Source: a virus
Virus record (IMG/VR): IMGVR_UViG_3300025099_000147
Location: 1 to 23,564 of that record
Strand: one strand, 5' to 3'
Length of the DNA: 23,564 bases
This document shows, piece after piece, positions 2,449-18,238 of this stretch (its first letter is position 1; each line of letters begins with the position of its first letter). A model generated the notes under the pieces. The model did no database searches. It was given only the letters and a program-made list of their open reading frames with translations, and was not told the origin of the DNA. A program made the position numbers and the translations under genes.

Positions 2449-2679
2449 ATGGAAATGGATGCAATGTTATTCTGGAATATAATTCTAACTATGGTTGTTG
2501 TACCATTTGGATGGGCATTTAACAAGATGTTTCAAGAGGTTAAACGAGTGCAGATACTTCTAAACAAGACACGAGAAGAGTATGCAACAAAAGAAGATGT
2601 CAGACAAGATATCGGCAGAGTCATGGAAGCTTTGCATAGATTAGAAGATAAATTAGACAGAGTGTTGAGTATTAGATAA
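2449..2679 (+). CDS. Small membrane protein with C-terminal coiled coil (possible holin or spanin-like)
   Basis: This 76-aa protein has one strongly hydrophobic segment at about residues 5-27 (LFWNIILTMVVVPFGWAF). A charged helix follows from about residue 28 to the end, with heptad-like spacing of hydrophobic residues (ILL, V, I, V, AL, L, L, V, L) that suggests a coiled coil. A GAGGG ribosome site precedes the ATG. The stop codon overlaps the next start as TAATG. Small one-pass membrane proteins next to tail genes are often holins or other lysis proteins. However, no endolysin is visible in the window, so the lysis role is only a guess. It could also be a virion membrane protein that takes part in DNA entry. 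Confidence 0.6.
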   Translation: MEMDAMLFWNIILTMVVVPFGWAFNKMFQEVKRVQILLNKTREEYATKEDVRQDIGRVMEALHRLEDKLDRVLSIR

Positions 2680-4667
2680 TGGCAGTATTTAAAGGTTTTA
2701 AACCACAAGGATTACAGAAGATAGCTACTCGCATGGGTTATGCGGGTGATATGGAGAAGTTTGATGACTACATAAAGGCAAACCCTGACAAAGAACGTGA
2801 GATGATTGTGTATAGAAGTAAGGCACAACAGATGGCTCGTGGTGGTTCTGTACGTAGGTTTGCTGAAGGTGGTGCTAACCCAAAAGGTGTTGATCTAATG
2901 CCAAAAATCCCAATACCACCGTCTGTTGGGGGTATGGAAGAATCTGCTGATCCAAGACAACTACCTCAAGCTAATGTTCCTCAAACAGACTATGAAGAAG
3001 GTGATACAATAGGAGATGTATCAGCTAAGATGTTAGAAACTCCCGGATTACCAGAGGGAGGTACAACTATACCCGTAGGCACACAAATTACAGGTAGTCA
3101 GTTAATAGACCCTAGAGGCGATGAGGGCATTGGACAAGTTGATGGCACAGTAGATGTAGATACTGCTAAAGCAGACACCACAAAAGCAGACCCTGTGGCA
3201 GCAGTAGATGCTAATCTTACAACAGCAGCTAAATCAGCTACTGGTGTTAGCACTGCATTGGATGCTTTAAACGCAGCTCAACTAGACCCTAATGACCCTA
3301 AAACTAAAGTTATTGCTGCTCAACAAACAGAATCTAGTGTAGGAAATTTAGATGCTGCTCAAGGTAAAGCAACATTATTAGAAAACCCTGTACAGAGAGA
3401 AATACAAGAAGGTGAATTAATTAGTGGTGTTGCAGATGCAGAAAAAGCCGCTAAGTTTGCTGAACAAATAGAAGCAGCTCAAGCTACACCCTCAGAAAAA
3501 GCTACAGTACAAGGACAACTTAAAACCTTAACTGAAGGCTTTGATGCTAACAATCCACCACCTTGGGCTGCGGCAACACTAAGAGGTGTTCAGTCACAGA
3601 TGGCAGCTAGAGGAATGGGTGCATCTTCAATGGCAGGACAAGCCATGATACAAGGTGCATTAGAATCAGCACTTCCTATAGCACAAGCAGATGCTCAAAC
3701 AATGGCTAGTTTTGAAGCACAGAATTTATCCAATAGACAAGCAAGAGCAATGTTGGCAGCAGAGCAACGTGCTAAATTTATAGGGCAAGAATTTGACCAA
3801 GCATTTCAAGCGAGGGTTCAGAATGCCTCTAAGATAAGTGACGTAGCTAATCAAAACTTTACAGCAGAGCAAAACATAGCTATGGAAAATAGTCGTGCAG
3901 TAAACACTATGAATCTAGCAAACTTAAATAATAATCAAGCATTAGTAATGGCTGAAGCCGCTGCTCTAGCAAACTTAGATACTGCTAATTTAAATAACAG
4001 ACAACAGGCTTCCGTTAAAAATGCACAGACTTTCTTAGACACAGAAATGGCTAACTTATCCAATAGACAGCAAACAGATTTATTTAAAACTCAACAAAGA
4101 GTGCAGTCATTATTTACTGACCAAGCTGCTGAAAATGCTGCCTCACAGTTTAATGCCACTTCAAAGAATCAAACAGATCAGTTTTTTGCTAATCTAGCAT
4201 CGCAGACATCTCAGTTCAATGCTTCACAAGCTAATGCACAATCTCAATTTAATGCAGGTCAAGAGAATGTTGTAGAGAGATTTAATGCAGAGATGAACAA
4301 TCAACGTGACCAATACAATGCAACCAACCAACTAGCTATTGCTCAAAACAATGCAGTGTGGAGAAGAGAAGTTGCTACAGCAGATACTGCGGCAATTAAT
4401 AGAGCCAACGAATTAAATGCCAATGCTGTATTAGACATATCTAAAGAAGCCTATGACAATCTTTGGTCTTACTATAGTGATACTATGGAGTGGGCATGGA
4501 CTAGTGCAGACAATCAACTAGACAGAATTAATAAATTAGCTATGGCACAATTAAGTGCTGATGCACAAAGAGATGCACAGCAGATGGCTAATGATTCTGC
4601 GGCAGGTGGAGCAGTAGGTGATTTAATTGGAGAACTTGGCAAAGAAGTAATAAAGGGGTTATTTTAA
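2679..4667 (+). CDS. Large virion protein with 11-residue repeat helix (probable internal/ejection protein)
   Basis: This 662-aa protein's start overlaps the previous stop (TAATG). Residues 1-65 are basic and end with QQMARGGSVRRFAEGG. Residues 65-300 are low-complexity, rich in Ala, Asp, Pro and Thr. Residues 349-590 form about 22 back-to-back 11-residue repeats in which position 1 is most often Asn and position 11 is often Phe, Tyr, Ala or Gln. Later repeats read QFNA, RFNA and QYNA. This pattern predicts a very long, nearly straight helical bundle (hendecad coiled coil). The last 15 residues are Gly-rich and hydrophobic. No enzymatic motif is seen. Its place among large uncharacterised virion genes suggests an internal core or DNA-ejection protein, or a long tail-needle element. 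Function is inferred, while the repeat is directly visible. Confidence 0.7.
   Translation: MAVFKGFKPQGLQKIATRMGYAGDMEKFDDYIKANPDKEREMIVYRSKAQQMARGGSVRRFAEGGANPKGVDLMPKIPIPPSVGGMEESADPRQLPQANVPQTDYEEGDTIGDVSAKMLETPGLPEGGTTIPVGTQITGSQLIDPRGDEGIGQVDGTVDVDTAKADTTKADPVAAVDANLTTAAKSATGVSTALDALNAAQLDPNDPKTKVIAAQQTESSVGNLDAAQGKATLLENPVQREIQEGELISGVADAEKAAKFAEQIEAAQATPSEKATVQGQLKTLTEGFDANNPPPWAAATLRGVQSQMAARGMGASSMAGQAMIQGALESALPIAQADAQTMASFEAQNLSNRQARAMLAAEQRAKFIGQEFDQAFQARVQNASKISDVANQNFTAEQNIAMENSRAVNTMNLANLNNNQALVMAEAAALANLDTANLNNRQQASVKNAQTFLDTEMANLSNRQQTDLFKTQQRVQSLFTDQAAENAASQFNATSKNQTDQFFANLASQTSQFNASQANAQSQFNAGQENVVERFNAEMNNQRDQYNATNQLAIAQNNAVWRREVATADTAAINRANELNANAVLDISKEAYDNLWSYYSDTMEWAWTSADNQLDRINKLAMAQLSADAQRDAQQMANDSAAGGAVGDLIGELGKEVIKGLF
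3723..4448 (+). repeat. 33-base-period coding repeat (22 hendecads)
   Basis: Cutting the 662-aa protein every 11 residues from residue 349 puts Asn at position 1 in 15 of 22 rows. Examples are NLSNRQARAML, NLNNNQALVMA, NLNNRQQASVK, NLSNRQQTDLF, NASQANAQSQF, NAGQENVVERF and NAEMNNQRDQY. At DNA level the copies are diverged, so this is an old protein-level repeat and not a recent tandem duplication. Confidence 0.85.
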
Positions 4668-4670
4668 ACA

Positions 4671-4898
4671 ATGGCATTCACAGCACCAGCAAGAAGAATA
4701 ATAAGTAATATGCAAAAACTACAGCTTCCATCAGAAAGACCAGAAAAACCAAAAACTGGTGGTATGATGGCTAGGAAAGGTAACTTTACACCTGTTGATG
4801 AGAAAGAAGATACTCCACCAACTATAAGAGCTAAAGAAATAGTAATGGCAATAAGAAAACAAAATAAAAAGAGGAATGGTTTAAATGAAACAGCTTGA
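4671..4898 (+). CDS. Small hypothetical protein with GGMMARKG motif
   Basis: This is a 75-aa basic, Pro/Lys-rich protein with no recognised domain. It starts 3 bases after the previous stop. The nearest purine-rich ribosome site (AAGGGG) is about 12 bases upstream of the ATG, so initiation may depend on coupling to the upstream gene. Residues 30-37 read GGMMARKG, which resembles the C-terminal GLMARRG of the next protein. The final 14 bases overlap the next gene in another frame. The strand was chosen because all neighbours are co-directional and tightly packed. The antisense frame in the same place has no such support. It probably belongs to the virion gene set, but its function is unknown. 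Confidence 0.6.
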   Translation: MAFTAPARRIISNMQKLQLPSERPEKPKTGGMMARKGNFTPVDEKEDTPPTIRAKEIVMAIRKQNKKRNGLNETA

Positions 4899-5427
4899 TG
4901 AAACATCCTTTGATAGACCTATTCCGGGAATGGGGATGACTCACGAACTAGGTGCTAGACCTTGGCAGACACCTCCTACTTATGTTACTGTAGATGAGGC
5001 TGCTGACTACTACATAGAAAAGATGTCTAGTCCTGAATTTAAAAACAAGCTACTTGATGTAATGGCAATGAAAGTGCCTTTAACAACAGTAGCAAACACC
5101 ATGCAATTATCTAGTGTTATGGAAGGATTGCACACAGTTGATGTTGGTATGATGATGATACCTATACTAGTAGAAGTTATGGCTTTGATAGGAGACTCTG
5201 CTGACGTAGATTATGTAACAGGTATGGATGCAAAGAAAGAAGCAAGACCTTCTATGATTAACAAAATTATTGAGGATATGAAATCTGAAATAGGCGATGT
5301 AGAAGATATGGATGAAGGCATGGAGATGCAACAACCACAAGAAGAAGCAGAGGCAATGCCTACAGAAGAGACACAAGAAGAGATGCCTATGGAACAACCC
5401 AAAGGCTTAATGGCAAGGAGAGGTTAA
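4885..5427 (+). CDS. Hypothetical virion-block protein with acidic C-terminus ending GLMARRG
   Basis: This 180-aa protein starts inside the end of the previous gene, with GAGG about 10 bases upstream of the ATG. Residues 1-60 contain an aromatic/proline segment (ARPWQTPPTYVTVDEAADYYIEKM). Residues 60-115 are predicted helical with a hydrophobic Met-rich stretch (VDVGMMMIPILVEVMALI). Residues 130-170 are a very acidic, Met/Gln/Glu-rich tail. The protein ends in KGLMARRG. No family is recognised. The acidic, flexible tail with a short basic end is compatible with a scaffold, adaptor or packaged virion protein, but this is speculation. The stop overlaps the next start as TAATG. Confidence 0.65.
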   Translation: MKQLDETSFDRPIPGMGMTHELGARPWQTPPTYVTVDEAADYYIEKMSSPEFKNKLLDVMAMKVPLTTVANTMQLSSVMEGLHTVDVGMMMIPILVEVMALIGDSADVDYVTGMDAKKEARPSMINKIIEDMKSEIGDVEDMDEGMEMQQPQEEAEAMPTEETQEEMPMEQPKGLMARRG

Positions 5428-6845
5428 TGGCATTTTTAGGTAGTTTAGGTAAATCATTAGGTTTAGATACTAACTTTGGTAAAGGTCTTGTTGGTGGTGT
5501 AGCTAAATCCATCAGTACTGGTATCCAAGAAGACAGAAAACGTACTCAAGATAATATAGACAACTTAGTTGTTGAAACATATAAAGGTGCTGTAGAAAGC
5601 AAAAAAGAATTTGACAAGATGTATAAAGAGAATAAAAAGCTTGTTGAAAACATTGCTGCTAACATGGGTGGTGAGCAAGGCATTAAACATCCTCAAGCAT
5701 TACAAGCTGCTCAAACATTAATAAACTTAAAAGGTTTGGATGGTGCATTTAAAGTAGCTCAAGATTATAATAAATCATTTAGAATGTATGGTAAGCATCC
5801 TACTAAGTCTTTACTTGCAGATGAGTCAGGAACTCCTACTGCTATAACATTAAGTGGTTTAACAAAAAGTACTCTTACTCCAATGTCTATTCCCGATGCA
5901 TCAAAGTTAGGTGAGTCAGCTGCTGTTGGATTTATGAAGATGCCTTTCTTTGGTGGCTCTGAAAAAAGAAGTTCTGAAATATCTTCTAAAGCAGAAGCTT
6001 TAATTAAAGCTAGAGGTATAGATGTAAATGCAAAAACTATTGAATTACCCCCAGCCTTAGAAGGTAAAATAGACCCTCTGATACTTGGCATAAAAGAAAA
6101 TCCTATAGAAGAAAAAGCTAGGCTTCTAACTATGTTAGCTAATGCTGAAAAAGATGGTACTTTAACTCCTAAAAAAGAAGCTGATATTAAAAGTATGATT
6201 GACATTACTGAAGGAATAGCAAAAAGTCTAAGAACTAAAAAGGGTTTAGACTATTTAACCTTAGATAGAATAGAACTTAAAACAGAAGAAACTCTTACTG
6301 GTATGTATGACATGAAACAAAAAAGAAGTAGCTACGGTGTTTATGAGGGTGCTGATACTAAAATTAAGCAGAAAGAAATATTGAATTTTTCTAAGAAATA
6401 CTATACGGACTTTATAAACAGAGCTAGTTTTGAGGGTGGAGATTTAAGAGATGGTAATGATAATTTTAGAAAGATAAATGATGCTATTATAAGAAATAAA
6501 AAATTAATAGGTACTATGATTAATGGGGAATATACAATACAAATAGATGAAAAGTCTGAGTATTTAAATTATGAACAACGAAAGATACTTAACCCTAAAT
6601 CTCCTCCACGTCAAGAAGTAGACACAGATAATACCAAGAAAGACACTACAGTACAAGTAGGCGAACTTAAATCCTCTCAAGAGTATGTAAGTGAATTAAA
6701 GGAATTGAAAAATAGATACCCTAACTTAGGACAAAATAGAATTACTGAAGTAGAGAAAAACTTTGTGAAGTCTTATCAAGCAGAAAATGAAGGAACTTCT
6801 ATGTCAGAAGCTCAAAAAGTATTTAGGCAGTTAACACAAGGGTAA
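5427..6845 (+). CDS. Hypothetical internal virion protein (472 aa)
   Basis: The start codon overlaps the previous stop (TAATG) and has AAGGAG six bases upstream. Residues 1-35 are Gly/Leu/Ser-rich and amphipathic (FLGSLGKSLGL, GLVGGVAKSI). Residues 35-85 form a charged helix likely to be coiled coil. The rest is Lys/Glu-rich and helical, without transmembrane segments or catalytic motifs that I recognise. It sits between the hendecad protein and the giant 1130-aa protein. In T7-like phages such a run of large proteins makes up the internal core that is ejected ahead of the DNA, so an ejection or core role is the best inference. Homology to T7 gp14/gp15 is not visible. Confidence 0.65.
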   Translation: MAFLGSLGKSLGLDTNFGKGLVGGVAKSISTGIQEDRKRTQDNIDNLVVETYKGAVESKKEFDKMYKENKKLVENIAANMGGEQGIKHPQALQAAQTLINLKGLDGAFKVAQDYNKSFRMYGKHPTKSLLADESGTPTAITLSGLTKSTLTPMSIPDASKLGESAAVGFMKMPFFGGSEKRSSEISSKAEALIKARGIDVNAKTIELPPALEGKIDPLILGIKENPIEEKARLLTMLANAEKDGTLTPKKEADIKSMIDITEGIAKSLRTKKGLDYLTLDRIELKTEETLTGMYDMKQKRSSYGVYEGADTKIKQKEILNFSKKYYTDFINRASFEGGDLRDGNDNFRKINDAIIRNKKLIGTMINGEYTIQIDEKSEYLNYEQRKILNPKSPPRQEVDTDNTKKDTTVQVGELKSSQEYVSELKELKNRYPNLGQNRITEVEKNFVKSYQAENEGTSMSEAQKVFRQLTQG

Positions 6846-6851
6846 ATATTA

Positions 6852-9800
6852 ATGTCCTACACGCAGATGTCTAAGGAACAATTAAATAAAGAAAACTTAA
6901 TTAATGATGTTGACTTCATCTATGATGCAAAACAGTTTTTGTATGACAGAGAAGATTATCAGTCAGACAACAATGAAGATATATATGACAGATACCTAGA
7001 ACACTTCCGTTATCAGAACGTGAATGAAGTGTCTGCTGTGCGTGATATGTATTTAGCACAAGACTATGAACGCAAAGGTGACGATGAAGGTCTTGAACGT
7101 ATGGGTAGGCTTATGTCTACATTTGAGAATCAAGATACAGAGTTTACATCAGAAACTGTGACAGACTATTTAGGTGGTGTATTTACTGCTCCATCTACTT
7201 ATGCCTCTATGTTTTCTTTTGGTGCAGGTAAAGCTGGAGCATTAGCAGCTCAACAAGGTATCAAGTTTGGCATTAAAGAAATAATAAAAGGTGGTGCTAA
7301 AGCTAGTGGTAGCAAGATGTCTACTAAAGCTTTGCAAAAAGGCACAGAACAAATGGGTAAACTAGCCACTGCTAAACAAGCATTCATAGGTGGTGGTTAT
7401 AAAACTGCCATTGGTGGTGCTACTGTTGATGCACTAGGTGGAGCAGGAACTGTTGCTGCCCAAGAACAAACTCGTGTTACTACGGATCAAAAAGATGAGA
7501 TAGATTATGGCACAGTTGCATTAGGTGGTGCTATAGCAGGTCTTCCCGGAGGTGTCTTAGGTGGTGTTACAGGTTCACGTAAAGCTTTTACCAGTAATGT
7601 AGCAGGACAATTTACTGCAAAAGAAATAAAAGCACGTACTAATAATATTAGTCATGTATACAAAACAATTAGCAGTAAAAAATTTGGTAAGGGTAAGGAT
7701 TTAAAAAGTAAAGTTGCTCAAGCTTCTGTAGGTGTATTAAAGAAGTCATTAGATGAAACTCTGGGCAGTTTTAATATGAATGTTGGTAAGAAGTTAAAGC
7801 TAGATAACGCACCTGAAAAAGGAACTCTGCTTAGTTTAGATGAAAAGATATTAAGAAACATAGGTTCTGCTGCAGGAGAAATAGTAGACAAGATTGAGCC
7901 TAGAGTAAAATTTGTTGATGGTAAAGATGTAAAGATAATCAAAGGCAGTAAAGAAGATTTAGAAGAAAGAATAACATCTCGTATAGCTAGAGGTATAGCT
8001 AGTCAACAGCTATCCACAGATAATTTTATGGGTATATTAAAAGCACATAATCTTAGTGCTACAGAGTTTGGAGCTTTGTATGCAGCAGAAATGTCTCAAG
8101 CTGGTAGAACTCTACAAACAGCTAGTACTATATCAAAGGCTCAAAGTAAAAAGTTATTTGAAGAGCTTACAGATTTAGATAAGGCTCTTGTTACATTAGG
8201 AGATACTACAGAAGCCGCTAGAAATAAAGTTATGCAACGAGCAGACAAAGGTTTAGTTTTAAACAAGGCTGGTGATTTCTTTAGGGCATTAAACAAGACA
8301 CGTATTGGTATGATGACTATTCAAGCCGCAACAACAGTTAGAAACACTACCAATGGTTACATGCGTAATTATGTATATGCTTTGGATAACTTAGGTGCAG
8401 GTGCATTCAATTATGTAAAAGGCTCATATCAACTAGCAAAAAATAGCACTGATGCCGAGTTGAGAAAATCTGCTGAGTTTGCAGTTAAAGAAGGTACAGC
8501 ACAATTAAGAGCAGGTGGTCAGTCTTTATTACTAAAAGATATGGTATTTGGATTAAAAGGAATAGATACTGAAATATTAACTAAGGTTTTTAGAGACCCC
8601 AAGCTAGGCAATTCAGATATAGCCAAACAATTATTCAGAGAGTTAGGCGATATAGGAACTTCTGTAGGTCCTGATTCTGGTAACATGTTAAAAACTGCTA
8701 GGTTTATGAACAAGTTTAATACCATGAGTGATAATGTATTTAAGTCTGCTATATTTTCTCGTGAGATAGACAAGTTAATTAAAACAGATGCAGCAGATGT
8801 CTTTGCAAAAAAGGGAATCAACGGTCTAAGTGATTTAGTTTCTAGTGGTAATTTTAAGCTTATGGATGACAAAGCATTAGCTGGAGCTATGGAAAAAGCA
8901 CTAGACTTTACATACCAAACTGGTAAGTTTAGAGGTAAGAGTGGTATATTTAATAGTGCAGCTGATACCTTTATACAAGCATCATCTAGTCAGTTAGGCT
9001 CTGCCTTTGTTCCTTTCCCAAGATATATTGTAAATCAGTTTAGATTTGTTTATGAACATGCTCCTGTACTTGGTATGCTAGACTTGGGTGGAATACTAAA
9101 TAAAACTAATTCTGCTGAAAGATTTGGAAAACAAGTAACCGGTTTAGCAATGATAGGTGCATTTCTAGGAATGAGAGCAACTCTTGGTGATGAGAACACA
9201 GGTGCTTATGAATATAAGAATCCTTTTGGTCATGGTACATTTGATGCTAGAGCATCTCTAGGACCTTTCATGGCATATGCGTTTGTCGCAGACTTTCTGT
9301 TTAGAAAAGGTAGACCCGGAGGAGAGATAGAACAATTAACAGGCACTGCTCTACATGATAATGACAAAGTATCAGGAACTATTAAAACTAGAGAAATAAC
9401 TGAAGCTTTATCGGGTGGTTTATCTAGGGCAGGTACAGGGTTACAGTTTGTTGATGGTATTGTTGATCTTTTTGTGGGAGAAAACGCACTAGAAGGTAAC
9501 AAAGCTGAAGAGGCTGCTACAAAGTTTATTGCTAACTATTTTAGTACGTACACTGTTGGTGCAGGCATGTTAAAAGATGCTGTCCAAGTTGTTGACCCAG
9601 ACACAAGATTATTAACAGATAATACAGACGTAGAATTTTTACCATACTTTTTAAAGCAGGCTACTAGATCATTTCCAATGGAGGCACATGCTGATGGGGA
9701 AGGTTTCTTTGAGAGACCTGCTCAAACTACTCCATATAAAACTACAGGCATAAGAAACACAATGCCTATGTTTAGGCAGATAACAGGTTTAACTCCTGTA

Positions 9801-10244
9801 GAACAAAAGACTACAGCACAAAAAGAGTTAGATAGGTTTCGTCTAGACTACTTTGAAGTAGCTCCTGTAAAGGTACAAGATAATATAGCTAACAGAGAAG
9901 CTAGGCAAATGGTTGCTAATGGTATCAAGTCACACTTAACAGACTTTATAAACAGTCCTGAATACGCAGGATTATCCAATGATTATGAAAGAGAAAAGAT
10001 TTTAAGAATAGAATTGAATGCTATACGCAGTGAAGCTGTAAAAGAAGCATTGGGTGAAAAAGATTATGATACAGCAGAGGATGTAATTAGAAAAGAAAAA
10101 GCTAGATTCTTTAGATTACCTGCTATGGATAGAAGAATTATAGTAGAAGGTTTTAAGAAACAATTTCCTGAAGTTGACATACAAGACGATGACTATGGAA
10201 TGTTAATGCAGTTTGGTGTGGACTATGGAATAGTTAGACGTTAA
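6852..10244 (+). CDS. Giant internal virion / DNA-ejection protein (1130 aa)
   Basis: This is the largest gene in the window, starting 6 bases after the previous stop with AAGGG upstream. The N-terminal 100 residues are acidic and Tyr-rich. Residues ~105-240 are Gly/Ala-rich and hydrophobic (for example YLGGVFTAPSTYASMF and GGAIAGLPGGVLGGV) and could insert into membranes. The centre is helical (around 480: IGMMTIQAATTVRNTTNGYMRN). Another hydrophobic part lies at about 760-820 (LAMIGAFLGMRATLG, LGPFMAYAFVADFLF). The C-terminus is charged and helical. Size, membrane-active segments and position as last gene of the virion block resemble large internal or ejection proteins of podoviruses. I see no lytic transglycosylase motif. 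The role is inferred from architecture and context. Confidence 0.65.
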   Translation: MSYTQMSKEQLNKENLINDVDFIYDAKQFLYDREDYQSDNNEDIYDRYLEHFRYQNVNEVSAVRDMYLAQDYERKGDDEGLERMGRLMSTFENQDTEFTSETVTDYLGGVFTAPSTYASMFSFGAGKAGALAAQQGIKFGIKEIIKGGAKASGSKMSTKALQKGTEQMGKLATAKQAFIGGGYKTAIGGATVDALGGAGTVAAQEQTRVTTDQKDEIDYGTVALGGAIAGLPGGVLGGVTGSRKAFTSNVAGQFTAKEIKARTNNISHVYKTISSKKFGKGKDLKSKVAQASVGVLKKSLDETLGSFNMNVGKKLKLDNAPEKGTLLSLDEKILRNIGSAAGEIVDKIEPRVKFVDGKDVKIIKGSKEDLEERITSRIARGIASQQLSTDNFMGILKAHNLSATEFGALYAAEMSQAGRTLQTASTISKAQSKKLFEELTDLDKALVTLGDTTEAARNKVMQRADKGLVLNKAGDFFRALNKTRIGMMTIQAATTVRNTTNGYMRNYVYALDNLGAGAFNYVKGSYQLAKNSTDAELRKSAEFAVKEGTAQLRAGGQSLLLKDMVFGLKGIDTEILTKVFRDPKLGNSDIAKQLFRELGDIGTSVGPDSGNMLKTARFMNKFNTMSDNVFKSAIFSREIDKLIKTDAADVFAKKGINGLSDLVSSGNFKLMDDKALAGAMEKALDFTYQTGKFRGKSGIFNSAADTFIQASSSQLGSAFVPFPRYIVNQFRFVYEHAPVLGMLDLGGILNKTNSAERFGKQVTGLAMIGAFLGMRATLGDENTGAYEYKNPFGHGTFDARASLGPFMAYAFVADFLFRKGRPGGEIEQLTGTALHDNDKVSGTIKTREITEALSGGLSRAGTGLQFVDGIVDLFVGENALEGNKAEEAATKFIANYFSTYTVGAGMLKDAVQVVDPDTRLLTDNTDVEFLPYFLKQATRSFPMEAHADGEGFFERPAQTTPYKTTGIRNTMPMFRQITGLTPVEQKTTAQKELDRFRLDYFEVAPVKVQDNIANREARQMVANGIKSHLTDFINSPEYAGLSNDYEREKILRIELNAIRSEAVKEALGEKDYDTAEDVIRKEKARFFRLPAMDRRIIVEGFKKQFPEVDIQDDDYGMLMQFGVDYGIVRR

Positions 10245-16219: not shown

Positions 16220-16248
16220 GTTATATCACGCAACGTCTTTAGTGTCAA
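16220..16248 (-). promoter_or_regulatory. Sigma70-like promoter for the putative ssDNA-binding protein gene
   Basis: On the minus strand TTGACA (16248-16243), 17 bases, then TATAAC (16225-16220). The -35 box lies in the last codons of the polymerase gene and the -10 box begins right after its TGA stop. The predicted start near 16213 gives a leader of about 26 bases with a ribosome site. Confidence 0.7.
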
Positions 16249-18238
16249 GCCAATTATCTCCTATTTTTGATTCTAATAGTAGTGGAACATTAAACTTTAT
16301 TGCAAAATGTGATTCGATTAGTTGTGTCAACTCTCTATTAATTTCTGTGATAAGAAATAATACTTGTTTGACCTCTTCGGGATGAACGTCAATGACTACA
16401 GAATCATGGACACTATTAACCAAGCAAGACTTCATACTAACTAACTTATTCTCTATATGAACTAACACGAGAGGAACTATGTCAGCAGTAGCAAACGATT
16501 GCACTGGGTAATTCTTTATCTGTGTAAAGTTTGTAACCTTACCATTTGTTAATCTTTTTATATCTGGGAATGAGAACTGTCTACCTGACGGTGTTGTAAT
16601 CATACCCGTGTTCATAGCTTCCGTAGCCAATCTGGAGTGCCATGACTTGATTCCTTGATACTTTTCTGTGAAGTGTGTGTAGTATGCTGCTTCAGCTTTT
16701 GTTCTTCCAAATCCTGTTGCACCGTAGAGTGGTGCGAAGGTGTGTGCTTTTGCATCTTGGCGAGAAGTCGATTGACCCGCATCTGTAATAACTTTAGACG
16801 TATATGAGTGAACATCGAATCCAGTAGTGACTTCATCTATAGCAACCTCGTCTTGTGATAGGTAGGCAGCGGCTCGGAACTCTAACTGAGCAAAGTCAGC
16901 TTCAAGTATCTTGCCACCACTCCATCTTGATATGAATACTTTCTTAACAGGGAATGTACCACCTCTAGGCATGTTCTGCATATTAGGGTCTGCACCACTA
17001 AACCTACCTGTAGATGTTCTGTGTTGTAGAAGCCTAACATGTAACTTGCCATCAGGCTTCATATAAGTTGATATGCCATGTATAAATGATGATAGATAAG
17101 TATCTAATGCAGACAGTCTCTGTAAGTCAGTTAGAAAGCTTAATGCTTCTTGCATATCATTCTTTCGTGCAACACCTTGAAGTAATGCTAAGTTACTTTT
17201 GTTAACACTAAATCCATTAGCACTAACCCATTTAGCATTAGGTGCATTAAACTTTAATCCTGCTATCTTCTGATTTGCAATAAAATGGTAGCCACTACTA
17301 TCACAATCGTTACAGTTAGTTGGTCTAGAATAAGGAGTTCCATCTTTCTTAACCTTTCTTATTTGACCTACACCTAGACAAGTACCACACCTACGTGCAT
17401 CAGTCTTATAAACAATAGTAGAATTATTCTCTACACACTTCTTATAATCTCTTGTATCCATATAAGGAGTAAAGTTATTTGCCCATAGACTTTTATCATT
17501 AGGTTTTCTACTATATATAACCCAAGACATTTGTTCTGGACTATTAAGATTGATAGGTGTGTCACCCATTAGACTATGTACTTGCTTGTTAAGTCTTTGT
17601 TCTATATCACTTTTTTCTGTTTCAAACTCAACTCTTACTTCGTCTAACTTACTAGTGTCTACAGTAAAACCTGTTTGATATATTCTAGCTAGTGTAAGAG
17701 CAACTTTGTTAGTTAGTAAAACTGTACTCATTAACTTTGAGTAATCTTCTGTGTTTAGTTTCTTGTATAACACATCTGATAATTCTTGTGTTGCTTTTAA
17801 GTCAGCAGATAAATAATCAGACAACTCTTGTTTAGGTATCTCATCAATAGGTACTTTGTTCTTGAAGTAGTCTTTCATAGTATCTTGTTTCTTAGTAGCC
17901 AAGTCATATCTATTAGCACATGCTTCTAGAGATAGTGGTTGTTTGATACCTCGTTGTAAAACATACTCAACTAACATTGTATCAAATACAGGACCATCAT
18001 ACTTCAATCCACATTCCCATAACCATAATAAGTCGTGTACTATGTTATGTCCTATAAGGATAGTTGCTTGGTCTAATAGTTCTTGCACACCATCAAAGCT
18101 ATCTCTGTACAAATACTCCTCACCATTATCCGTAAGGCAACCTACCATAACAAGTTTGTTGTCAGTCTCAAAGGGGTCAAGATGTAACTTACCATCTCTA
18201 TGAGTAACAGTATTTTCTACATCAAGTGTTAGCTTCAT
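16226..18238 (-). CDS. Family A DNA polymerase with 3'-5' exonuclease and a DnaJ-like zinc-finger insertion
   Basis: This is the 670-aa replicative polymerase. Exonuclease motifs are DVEN (Asp6, Glu8), HNIVHD (Asp69) and YLSAD (Tyr142, Asp146). Residues 284-316 contain CGTCLGVG and CNDCDSSG, two CxxCxGxG-like knuckles as in the DnaJ cysteine-rich domain. The full DnaJ domain has four, so this is a partial one. Polymerase motif A is EADFAQLEFRAAA (Asp448). The O helix has Arg493, Lys497, Phe501 and Tyr505. Motif C is VHDS (His611, Asp612). Phe501 corresponds to E. coli Pol I Phe762. The exonuclease appears intact, while no 5'-3' exonuclease domain is present. AAGGAG lies nine bases before the ATG, within the 3' end of the HNH gene, which overlaps it by 17 bases. 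Confidence 0.95.
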   Translation of the reverse strand: MKLTLDVENTVTHRDGKLHLDPFETDNKLVMVGCLTDNGEEYLYRDSFDGVQELLDQATILIGHNIVHDLLWLWECGLKYDGPVFDTMLVEYVLQRGIKQPLSLEACANRYDLATKKQDTMKDYFKNKVPIDEIPKQELSDYLSADLKATQELSDVLYKKLNTEDYSKLMSTVLLTNKVALTLARIYQTGFTVDTSKLDEVRVEFETEKSDIEQRLNKQVHSLMGDTPINLNSPEQMSWVIYSRKPNDKSLWANNFTPYMDTRDYKKCVENNSTIVYKTDARRCGTCLGVGQIRKVKKDGTPYSRPTNCNDCDSSGYHFIANQKIAGLKFNAPNAKWVSANGFSVNKSNLALLQGVARKNDMQEALSFLTDLQRLSALDTYLSSFIHGISTYMKPDGKLHVRLLQHRTSTGRFSGADPNMQNMPRGGTFPVKKVFISRWSGGKILEADFAQLEFRAAAYLSQDEVAIDEVTTGFDVHSYTSKVITDAGQSTSRQDAKAHTFAPLYGATGFGRTKAEAAYYTHFTEKYQGIKSWHSRLATEAMNTGMITTPSGRQFSFPDIKRLTNGKVTNFTQIKNYPVQSFATADIVPLVLVHIENKLVSMKSCLVNSVHDSVVIDVHPEEVKQVLFLITEINRELTQLIESHFAIKFNVPLLLESKIGDNWLDTKDVA

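What the first reader, a model, noticed from the sequence alone, without database searches (positions are those of the whole stretch)
3723..4448. Very long 11-residue (hendecad) repeat with an asparagine ladder in a virion protein
Residues 349-590 of the 662-aa protein can be cut into 22 unbroken rows of 11 with no gap. Asn is at position 1 in 15 rows and Phe/Tyr clusters at position 11 in the later rows. This goes well beyond a generic coiled-coil and predicts a straight or right-handed helical bundle roughly 36 nm long (242 residues at about 0.15 nm each). That is long enough to span a cell envelope or line an ejection tunnel. Buried Asn at each turn would set register or oligomer state. I know of no named phage protein family defined by this repeat.
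Basis: partly seen in the sequence, partly recalled or inferred. Interest (0 to 1): 0.65.

Follow-up and report, generated by a model that had tools for sequence, protein, structure and literature searches.

The report
Register-locked 11-residue-repeat phage ejection protein
An abundant group of short-tailed ocean viruses carries a very long helical protein built from 11-residue units, whose length varies widely between viruses but only by whole units; it sits beside genes for proteins of the kind injected into the host with the viral DNA, so it is probably part of the DNA-entry machinery.

Summary
The 662-aa protein (window 2679-4667) has a strong 11-residue repeat at residues 349-590. It is the homologue of HMO-2011 gp25, a 'hypothetical protein' in an abundant group of marine podophages. 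In 266 of 266 homologues the distance across the repeat differs from the window's by an exact multiple of 11, in 17 length classes from 118 to 778 residues. Flanking parts of the same protein vary freely. The unit is often a 22-mer, and a 110-residue (10-unit) block is duplicated in tandem.

AlphaFold predicts alpha-helix, but hydrophobicity lacks the 11/3 period of an ordinary hendecad coiled coil: each helix has two opposite apolar stripes with Asn/Gln in them. Length does not follow host or genome size, so an 'envelope ruler' is not supported.

The gene heads a conserved cassette whose 1130-aa member folds like podophage internal virion proteins. Best reading: a podoviral ejection protein whose helices pack side by side in register, possibly as an Asn/Gln-lined DNA conduit like the phiX174 H tube. 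No sequence homology to T7 gp14/gp15, phiX174 H or tape-measure families was found. New variant of a known kind. Virion location and oligomer remain inferred.

The parts
2679..4667 (+). gene of the 662-aa repeat protein, homologue of HMO-2011 gp25 (61% identity)
3723..4448 (+). 22 gapless 11-residue rows (residues 349-590), Asn ladder at position 1, Phe/Tyr at position 11 in later rows
4449..4526 (+). continuation of the fixed 11-residue register to invariant R616 (W561-R616 = 55 residues in 250/250 homologues)
3480..3713 (+). conserved non-repeat helical segment before the repeat (residues 268-345: TVQGQL..PPWAA..ARGMGASS..ALPIAQADAQ), anchor of the length test
2703..2843 (+). small N-terminal helical domain (residues 9-55, pLDDT about 90); absent or displaced in some homologues
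4671..4898 (+). 75-aa ORF of the cassette, not conserved in sequence
4885..5427 (+). 180-aa partner protein, found beside the repeat gene in 234 loci; one hydrophobic stretch (residues 85-103); no known family
5427..6845 (+). 472-aa protein at the place of a gp15-like ejection protein; allele exchanged between relatives
6852..10244 (+). 1130-aa protein whose predicted fold matches internal virion proteins and large polyvalent proteins of phages

Best explanation
The protein is an internal virion (DNA-ejection) protein of HMO-2011-type podophages. Shown: the repeat, its absolute register conservation, and its place at the head of a cassette with a gp16-like internal virion protein. Predicted: alpha-helix through most of 318-661. 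Inferred: several copies leave the capsid ahead of or with the DNA and their long helices lie side by side in register. Each helix has two opposite apolar stripes (positions 2-6-10 and 4-8-11) that contact its two neighbours, while Asn/Gln-rich polar faces (1-5-9 and 3-7) line the inside and outside of a tube or sheet, as Asn, Gln and Arg line the phiX174 H tube. Because neighbouring helices interlock every 11 residues, an insertion or deletion survives only if it is a whole number of units, so length drifts by tandem duplication or loss of 11-, 22- or 110-residue blocks without being tuned to the envelope or the genome.
For: Register: 254/254 (13 lengths) and then 12/12 in a set fetched afterwards, with four new lengths, differ from the window by multiples of 11; control stretches of the same protein do not (83 lengths spread evenly mod 11; and 88/93/94/96). 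At least 21 length changes on the tree of 138 non-redundant flanks. Helix 462-661 continuous at pLDDT mostly 75-85, no Pro and only two Gly in 242 residues. Two-stripe wheel with amide faces. The order repeat protein, ~75 aa, ~180 aa, ~400-800 aa, ~800-1400 aa recurs, with occasional extra or missing small genes, in phages of SAR116, Roseobacter, Pelagibacter, Rhizobium, Sinorhizobium, Vibrio, Aeromonas and Pseudoalteromonas hosts; canonical ejection operons run ~200 aa, 431-982 aa, 609-1337 aa (PMC8954989). The 1130-aa protein's model matches internal virion proteins of Pelagibacter phage EXVC018P (E 5e-8) and cyanophage S-RIP1 (E 6e-6) and a large polyvalent protein (E 8e-19). The C-terminus of the CRP-738 homologue matches PHROG 'DNA ejection protein' (E 2e-13), though this match includes its S74 domain. 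phiX174 H: hendecads, decameric helical tube, 18 of 23 lumen positions N/Q/R (PMC7354561).
Against: No virion proteomics found for any member; virion location is inferred. No sequence homology to T7 gp14, gp15 or phiX174 H, nor of the 1130-aa protein to T7 gp16. No multimer prediction was possible; monomer pTM is 0.31. The longest members (778 residues between anchors, about 117 nm if one straight helix) are hard to fit as a simple straight trans-envelope tube. A C-terminal S74 chaperone in a few members points to trimers rather than a barrel. The wheel fit is crude (R2 0.34). Duplication inside a repeat makes unit-sized changes by itself, so only the absence of other sizes speaks for constraint.
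Confidence: 0.5

Rival explanations
1. It is a structural rod of the internal core that stays in or is spooled with the packaged DNA (portal-proximal core or DNA organiser) and does not form a conduit.
For: Same gene place and predicted helix; Asn/Gln/Arg-rich faces could contact DNA; length free of host and genome size.
Against: Does not by itself explain why only whole 11-residue units are tolerated; the conserved cassette is of the ejected kind.
Confidence: 0.2
2. It is a tape-measure-like ruler that sets the length of a tail or tail extension; units of 11 residues are its marks.
For: Known tape-measure proteins vary in number of 11-residue units with aromatic markers (PMC3271669, PMC5099701); here Phe/Tyr at position 11 and copy number varies by whole units.
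Against: HMO-2011-type phages have short tails (PMC9038755); no tape-measure family matches; no tail tube or tape chaperone annotated beside it; lengths range 118-778.
Confidence: 0.1
3. It is the helical stalk of a trimeric tail fibre or spike.
For: Lies just after tail-fibre genes; a few homologues (CRP-738, CRP-235) end in the Peptidase_S74 chaperone typical of trimeric fibres.
Against: No single hydrophobic stripe as a parallel trimer needs; no receptor-binding domain in most members, whose chain ends soon after the helix; constant company of the ejection-type cassette.
Confidence: 0.12
4. The conservation of multiples of 11 is only a by-product of recombination between repeats, without structural constraint.
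For: L199 shows a 330-bp tandem array (3.6 copies, no indels); unit-sized changes arise easily in repeats.
Against: Homologues only 26-40% identical show no small indel at all across the repeat, while the N-terminal part of the same proteins has 83 lengths.
Confidence: 0.08

Closest known systems
phiX174 pilot protein H (DNA-translocating tube)
   Same: alpha-helical, 11-residue repeats, faces rich in Asn/Gln/Arg, DNA delivery (PMC7354561)
   Different: three hendecads then heptads, decamer shown by crystal structure, ssDNA microvirus; no sequence similarity; here 22 or more rows in the window's class, in dsDNA podophages
Siphovirus tape-measure proteins with 11-residue repeats
   Same: 11-residue units, aromatic marker residue, number of units varies (PMC3271669, PMC5099701)
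   Different: they measure long tails; no family match here, short-tailed phage, different gene neighbourhood
T7/P22 ejection proteins gp14, gp15, gp16 and relatives
   Same: operon order and sizes of the following genes; neighbouring 1130-aa protein folds like internal virion proteins
   Different: no sequence match; the repeat protein looks like an additional or very divergent component
HMO-2011 gp25 and homologues
   Same: same family, 61% identity to gp25
   Different: nothing essential; annotated hypothetical, repeat not described in the papers searched

Membership tests
HMO-2011 gp25 family | full-length sequence similarity | tested here: met
   60.9% over 662 residues to HMO-2011 gp25
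HMO-2011 gp25 family | conserved gene neighbourhood including the ~180-aa partner | tested here: met
Canonical hendecad coiled coil | 11-residue periodicity | tested here: met
Canonical hendecad coiled coil | single hydrophobic stripe with period 11/3 | tested here: not met
   power 0.24 at 11/3, 10.8 at 11/4, 7.0 at 11/5; two opposite stripes
phiX174 H tube | sequence homology | tested here: not met
   hhalign probability 0.2%
phiX174 H tube | helical barrel with N/Q/R lumen | not testable with these tools
   no multimer prediction; composition and wheel agree
T7 gp14-like ejection protein | profile similarity | tested here: not met
   probability 0.1-0.3%; an extremely divergent relative is not excluded
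Podoviral ejection operon | presence of a gp16-like large internal virion protein | tested here: met
   fold match to internal virion and polyvalent proteins; no sequence match to T7 gp16 itself
Podoviral ejection operon | protein present in virion and ejected | not testable with these tools
   no proteomics found
Tape-measure protein | match to a tape-measure family model | tested here: not met
   no significant Pfam, NCBIfam or PHROG match
Tape-measure protein | long tail | not tested
   literature only: HMO-2011-type phages are short-tailed (PMC9038755)

The most novel reading that the evidence does not exclude
A new class of register-locked helical DNA conduit: many copies of two-faced 11-residue-repeat helices assemble into an Asn/Gln-lined tube or sheet whose repeat region can be 118 to 778 residues long, extended in whole units by tandem duplication, in one of the most abundant groups of ocean viruses.
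Probability: 0.25. Interest if true: 0.78.

Novelty: new variant of a known kind. Interest (0 to 1): 0.55.

Why it matters
Ejection proteins of podophages are poorly understood and mostly unrecognisable by sequence. This family gives a clear sequence rule (only whole 11-residue units are allowed, any number of them) in phages that are among the most abundant in the ocean. It makes a structural hypothesis directly testable and offers natural length variants from 118 to 778 residues to test what the length of an ejection protein does.

Tried and rejected
Family libraries: no match for the repeat protein in Pfam, NCBIfam or PHROGs at significant E-values, nor in PDB sequences. Fold search of the model: only generic long-helix matches in PDB and remote viral matches, inconclusive. 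Fold search of the 1130-aa model in PDB: nothing significant. Homology to T7 gp14/15/16 and phiX174 H by profile comparison: none. Relation of length to genome size: none (Spearman -0.11, p 0.65, n 21). A strict 110-residue quantum was considered and rejected: classes 217, 239, 250, 316, 426 and 536 exist; only 11 is strict. Beta-solenoid (Asn ladder) considered: AlphaFold gives helix, and composition is helical. The original HMO-2011 paper could not be read.

Full report
WHAT WAS CLAIMED.

OBSERVATION. Confirmed. Residues 349-590 (3723-4448) form 22 rows of 11 with Asn at position 1 in 15 rows. Identity autocorrelation is z 4.5, 5.6, 5.1 and 4.4 at lags 11, 22, 33 and 44, and a phase with 15 or more Asn was never reached in 20,000 shuffles. 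Local self-similarity at multiples of 11 stands out most clearly from about 361 to 569.

WHAT THE SEQUENCE COMES FROM. The window is a 23.6-kb IMG/VR virus record. The protein is 61% identical over its length to gp25 of Puniceispirillum phage HMO-2011, and gene order agrees with that phage. Relatives occur in Roseobacter, Pelagibacter, Rhizobium, Sinorhizobium, Vibrio, Aeromonas and Pseudoalteromonas phages and in many metagenomic virus contigs (the best 80 of 391 and of 534 were kept). No Pfam, NCBIfam or PDB family matches, and PHROGs gives nothing significant for the window's protein.

REGISTER TEST. I placed two anchors outside or at the edge of the repeat (P333 and W561) with profile models and measured the distance between them without aligning the repeat. 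In 254 of 254 proteins, in 13 length classes, the distance differs from the window's 228 by a multiple of 11. A second set, fetched afterwards from bacterial genome contigs, gave 12 of 12 and four new lengths (118, 239, 250, 536), again all multiples. The 17 lengths are 118, 151, 162, 173, 184, 217, 228, 239, 250, 316, 338, 426, 448, 536, 558, 668 and 778. Controls in the same proteins behave differently: from the N-terminal domain to R240 there are 83 lengths spread evenly over all residues mod 11; from R240 to P333 there are 93, 94, 96 and 88. W561 to R616 is 55, five units, in 250 of 250. Many loci are near-duplicates; on a tree of 138 non-redundant flank sequences the length classes need at least 21 changes by parsimony, so the changes are many and not one inherited event. 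A very distant relative (Pseudoalteromonas phage Y3, only the N-anchor recognisable) still shows the 11, 22, 33, 44 periodicity. The likely source of change is tandem duplication: locus L199 has a 330-bp array (110 residues) in 3.6 copies without indels, and the longest members are made of 22-residue units in blocks of five.

WHAT SETS THE LENGTH. Not the host or the genome. Phages of Roseobacter strain FZCC0040 have 162 (CRP-3, CRP-212, CRP-235) and 217 (CRP-207); phages of FZCC0023 have 228 (CRP-1, CRP-2, CRP-13) and 217 (CRP-9); Pelagibacter phages have 162 and 316 (on different strains). Genome size does not correlate (Spearman -0.11, p 0.65). So phase is fixed and length is free.

STRUCTURE. 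AlphaFold2 with 69 sequences predicts helix through most of 318 to 661, with one 200-residue helix (462-661, pLDDT mostly 75-85, lower at the C-terminal end), breaks at 368-373, 414-417 and 460-461, and low confidence at 390-460. pTM is low (0.31), which is not surprising for one chain of a possible assembly. Over 49 diverse representatives, the wheel at 98.2 degrees per residue shows apolar stripes at positions 2-6-10 and 4-8-11, with Gln at 6 and Asn at 4 inside them, and polar faces 1-5-9 (Asn, Arg/Lys, Asp/Glu) and 3-7 (Ser, Gln). The stripes lie roughly opposite (about 165-177 degrees; the fit is crude, R2 0.34). Hydrophobic power at 11/3 is nearly nil in the window and the 11/5 and 11/4 terms dominate in all members examined. 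A helix with two opposite seams is what a helical barrel or sheet needs, and is not what a two- to four-stranded hendecad coiled coil needs (inference). The oligomer itself could not be predicted.

CASSETTE. The repeat gene is followed by proteins of about 75, 180, 470 and 1130 aa, and the same order recurs in distant phages, with occasional extra or missing small genes. The 180-aa partner is conserved beside it in 234 loci, while the 472-aa and 1130-aa proteins are exchanged between relatives. The sizes and order of the last three match the canonical ejection operon gp14-gp15-gp16 (PMC8954989), though sequence does not. The 1130-aa model (mean pLDDT 73, pTM 0.67) matches predicted structures annotated as internal virion proteins of Pelagibacter phage EXVC018P and cyanophage S-RIP1 and as large polyvalent proteins; the HTVC033P member at this place carries Pfam LPD38, and its N-terminal part aligns with the window's protein profile (hhalign probability 92%). 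I therefore place the cassette among internal virion (ejection) proteins. That the repeat protein itself is in the virion is inferred.

MECHANISM. Most likely the protein is packaged, leaves with or ahead of the DNA, and its helices line up side by side in register to form a tube or sheet. The phiX174 H tube shows that 11-residue-repeat helices with N/Q/R-lined lumens do serve as DNA conduits (PMC7354561). The longest members argue against a simple straight tube across the envelope. The rivals are an internal core rod, a tape-measure-like ruler and a fibre stalk; a few members with a C-terminal S74 chaperone keep the last one alive.

NOVELTY. 11-residue repeats in phage proteins are known from tape-measure proteins (PMC3271669, PMC5099701) and phiX174 H. 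In the papers searched I found no description of this family, of its absolute register rule, or of such a protein in podophages. I rate it a new variant of a known kind.

Noticed in passing
L260:3712-4161 (HTVC115P); L252:15094-15546 (Y3); L277:6399-6914: Directly after the repeat gene some phages carry an acyltransferase: a 'toxin-activating lysine-acyltransferase' in HTVC115P, N-acetyltransferases in Y3 and in a Luteibacter contig. It could modify ejection proteins.
   Followed up: no
L081:21900-22121 and at least 31 other homologues: Many homologues end in an extra C-terminal domain CWVAREVYG...FRxWL...AP.WF...Y..GE..A.FI..KP with no family match, resembling the CFI-box found at C-termini elsewhere (from memory).
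   Followed up: partly
L090:6486-8900 (CRP-738), L262:1318-3852 (CRP-235): These homologues end in a Peptidase_S74-like intramolecular chaperone domain, unusual for a helical ejection protein.
   Followed up: partly
window 4885-5427: 180-aa protein linked to the repeat gene in 234 loci, with one strongly hydrophobic stretch (residues 85-103) and no family match.
   Followed up: partly
L074, L082 (CRP-1), L083 (CRP-603): The N-terminal half of the repeat protein is extremely variable, with large extra segments that make some members over 1000 aa long.
   Followed up: no
window 16226-18238: Family A DNA polymerase with a DnaJ-type zinc-finger-like insert, as annotated in HMO-2011.
   Followed up: no
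L277:5479-6459 (Luteibacter MAG contig of 394 kb): A short relative (326 aa) on a long bacterial contig suggests prophage members of the wider family.
   Followed up: partly
L087:7115-9229 (HTVC033P): Two 2OG-Fe(II) oxygenases and a putative ferrochelatase gene sit between tail genes and the ejection cassette.
   Followed up: no
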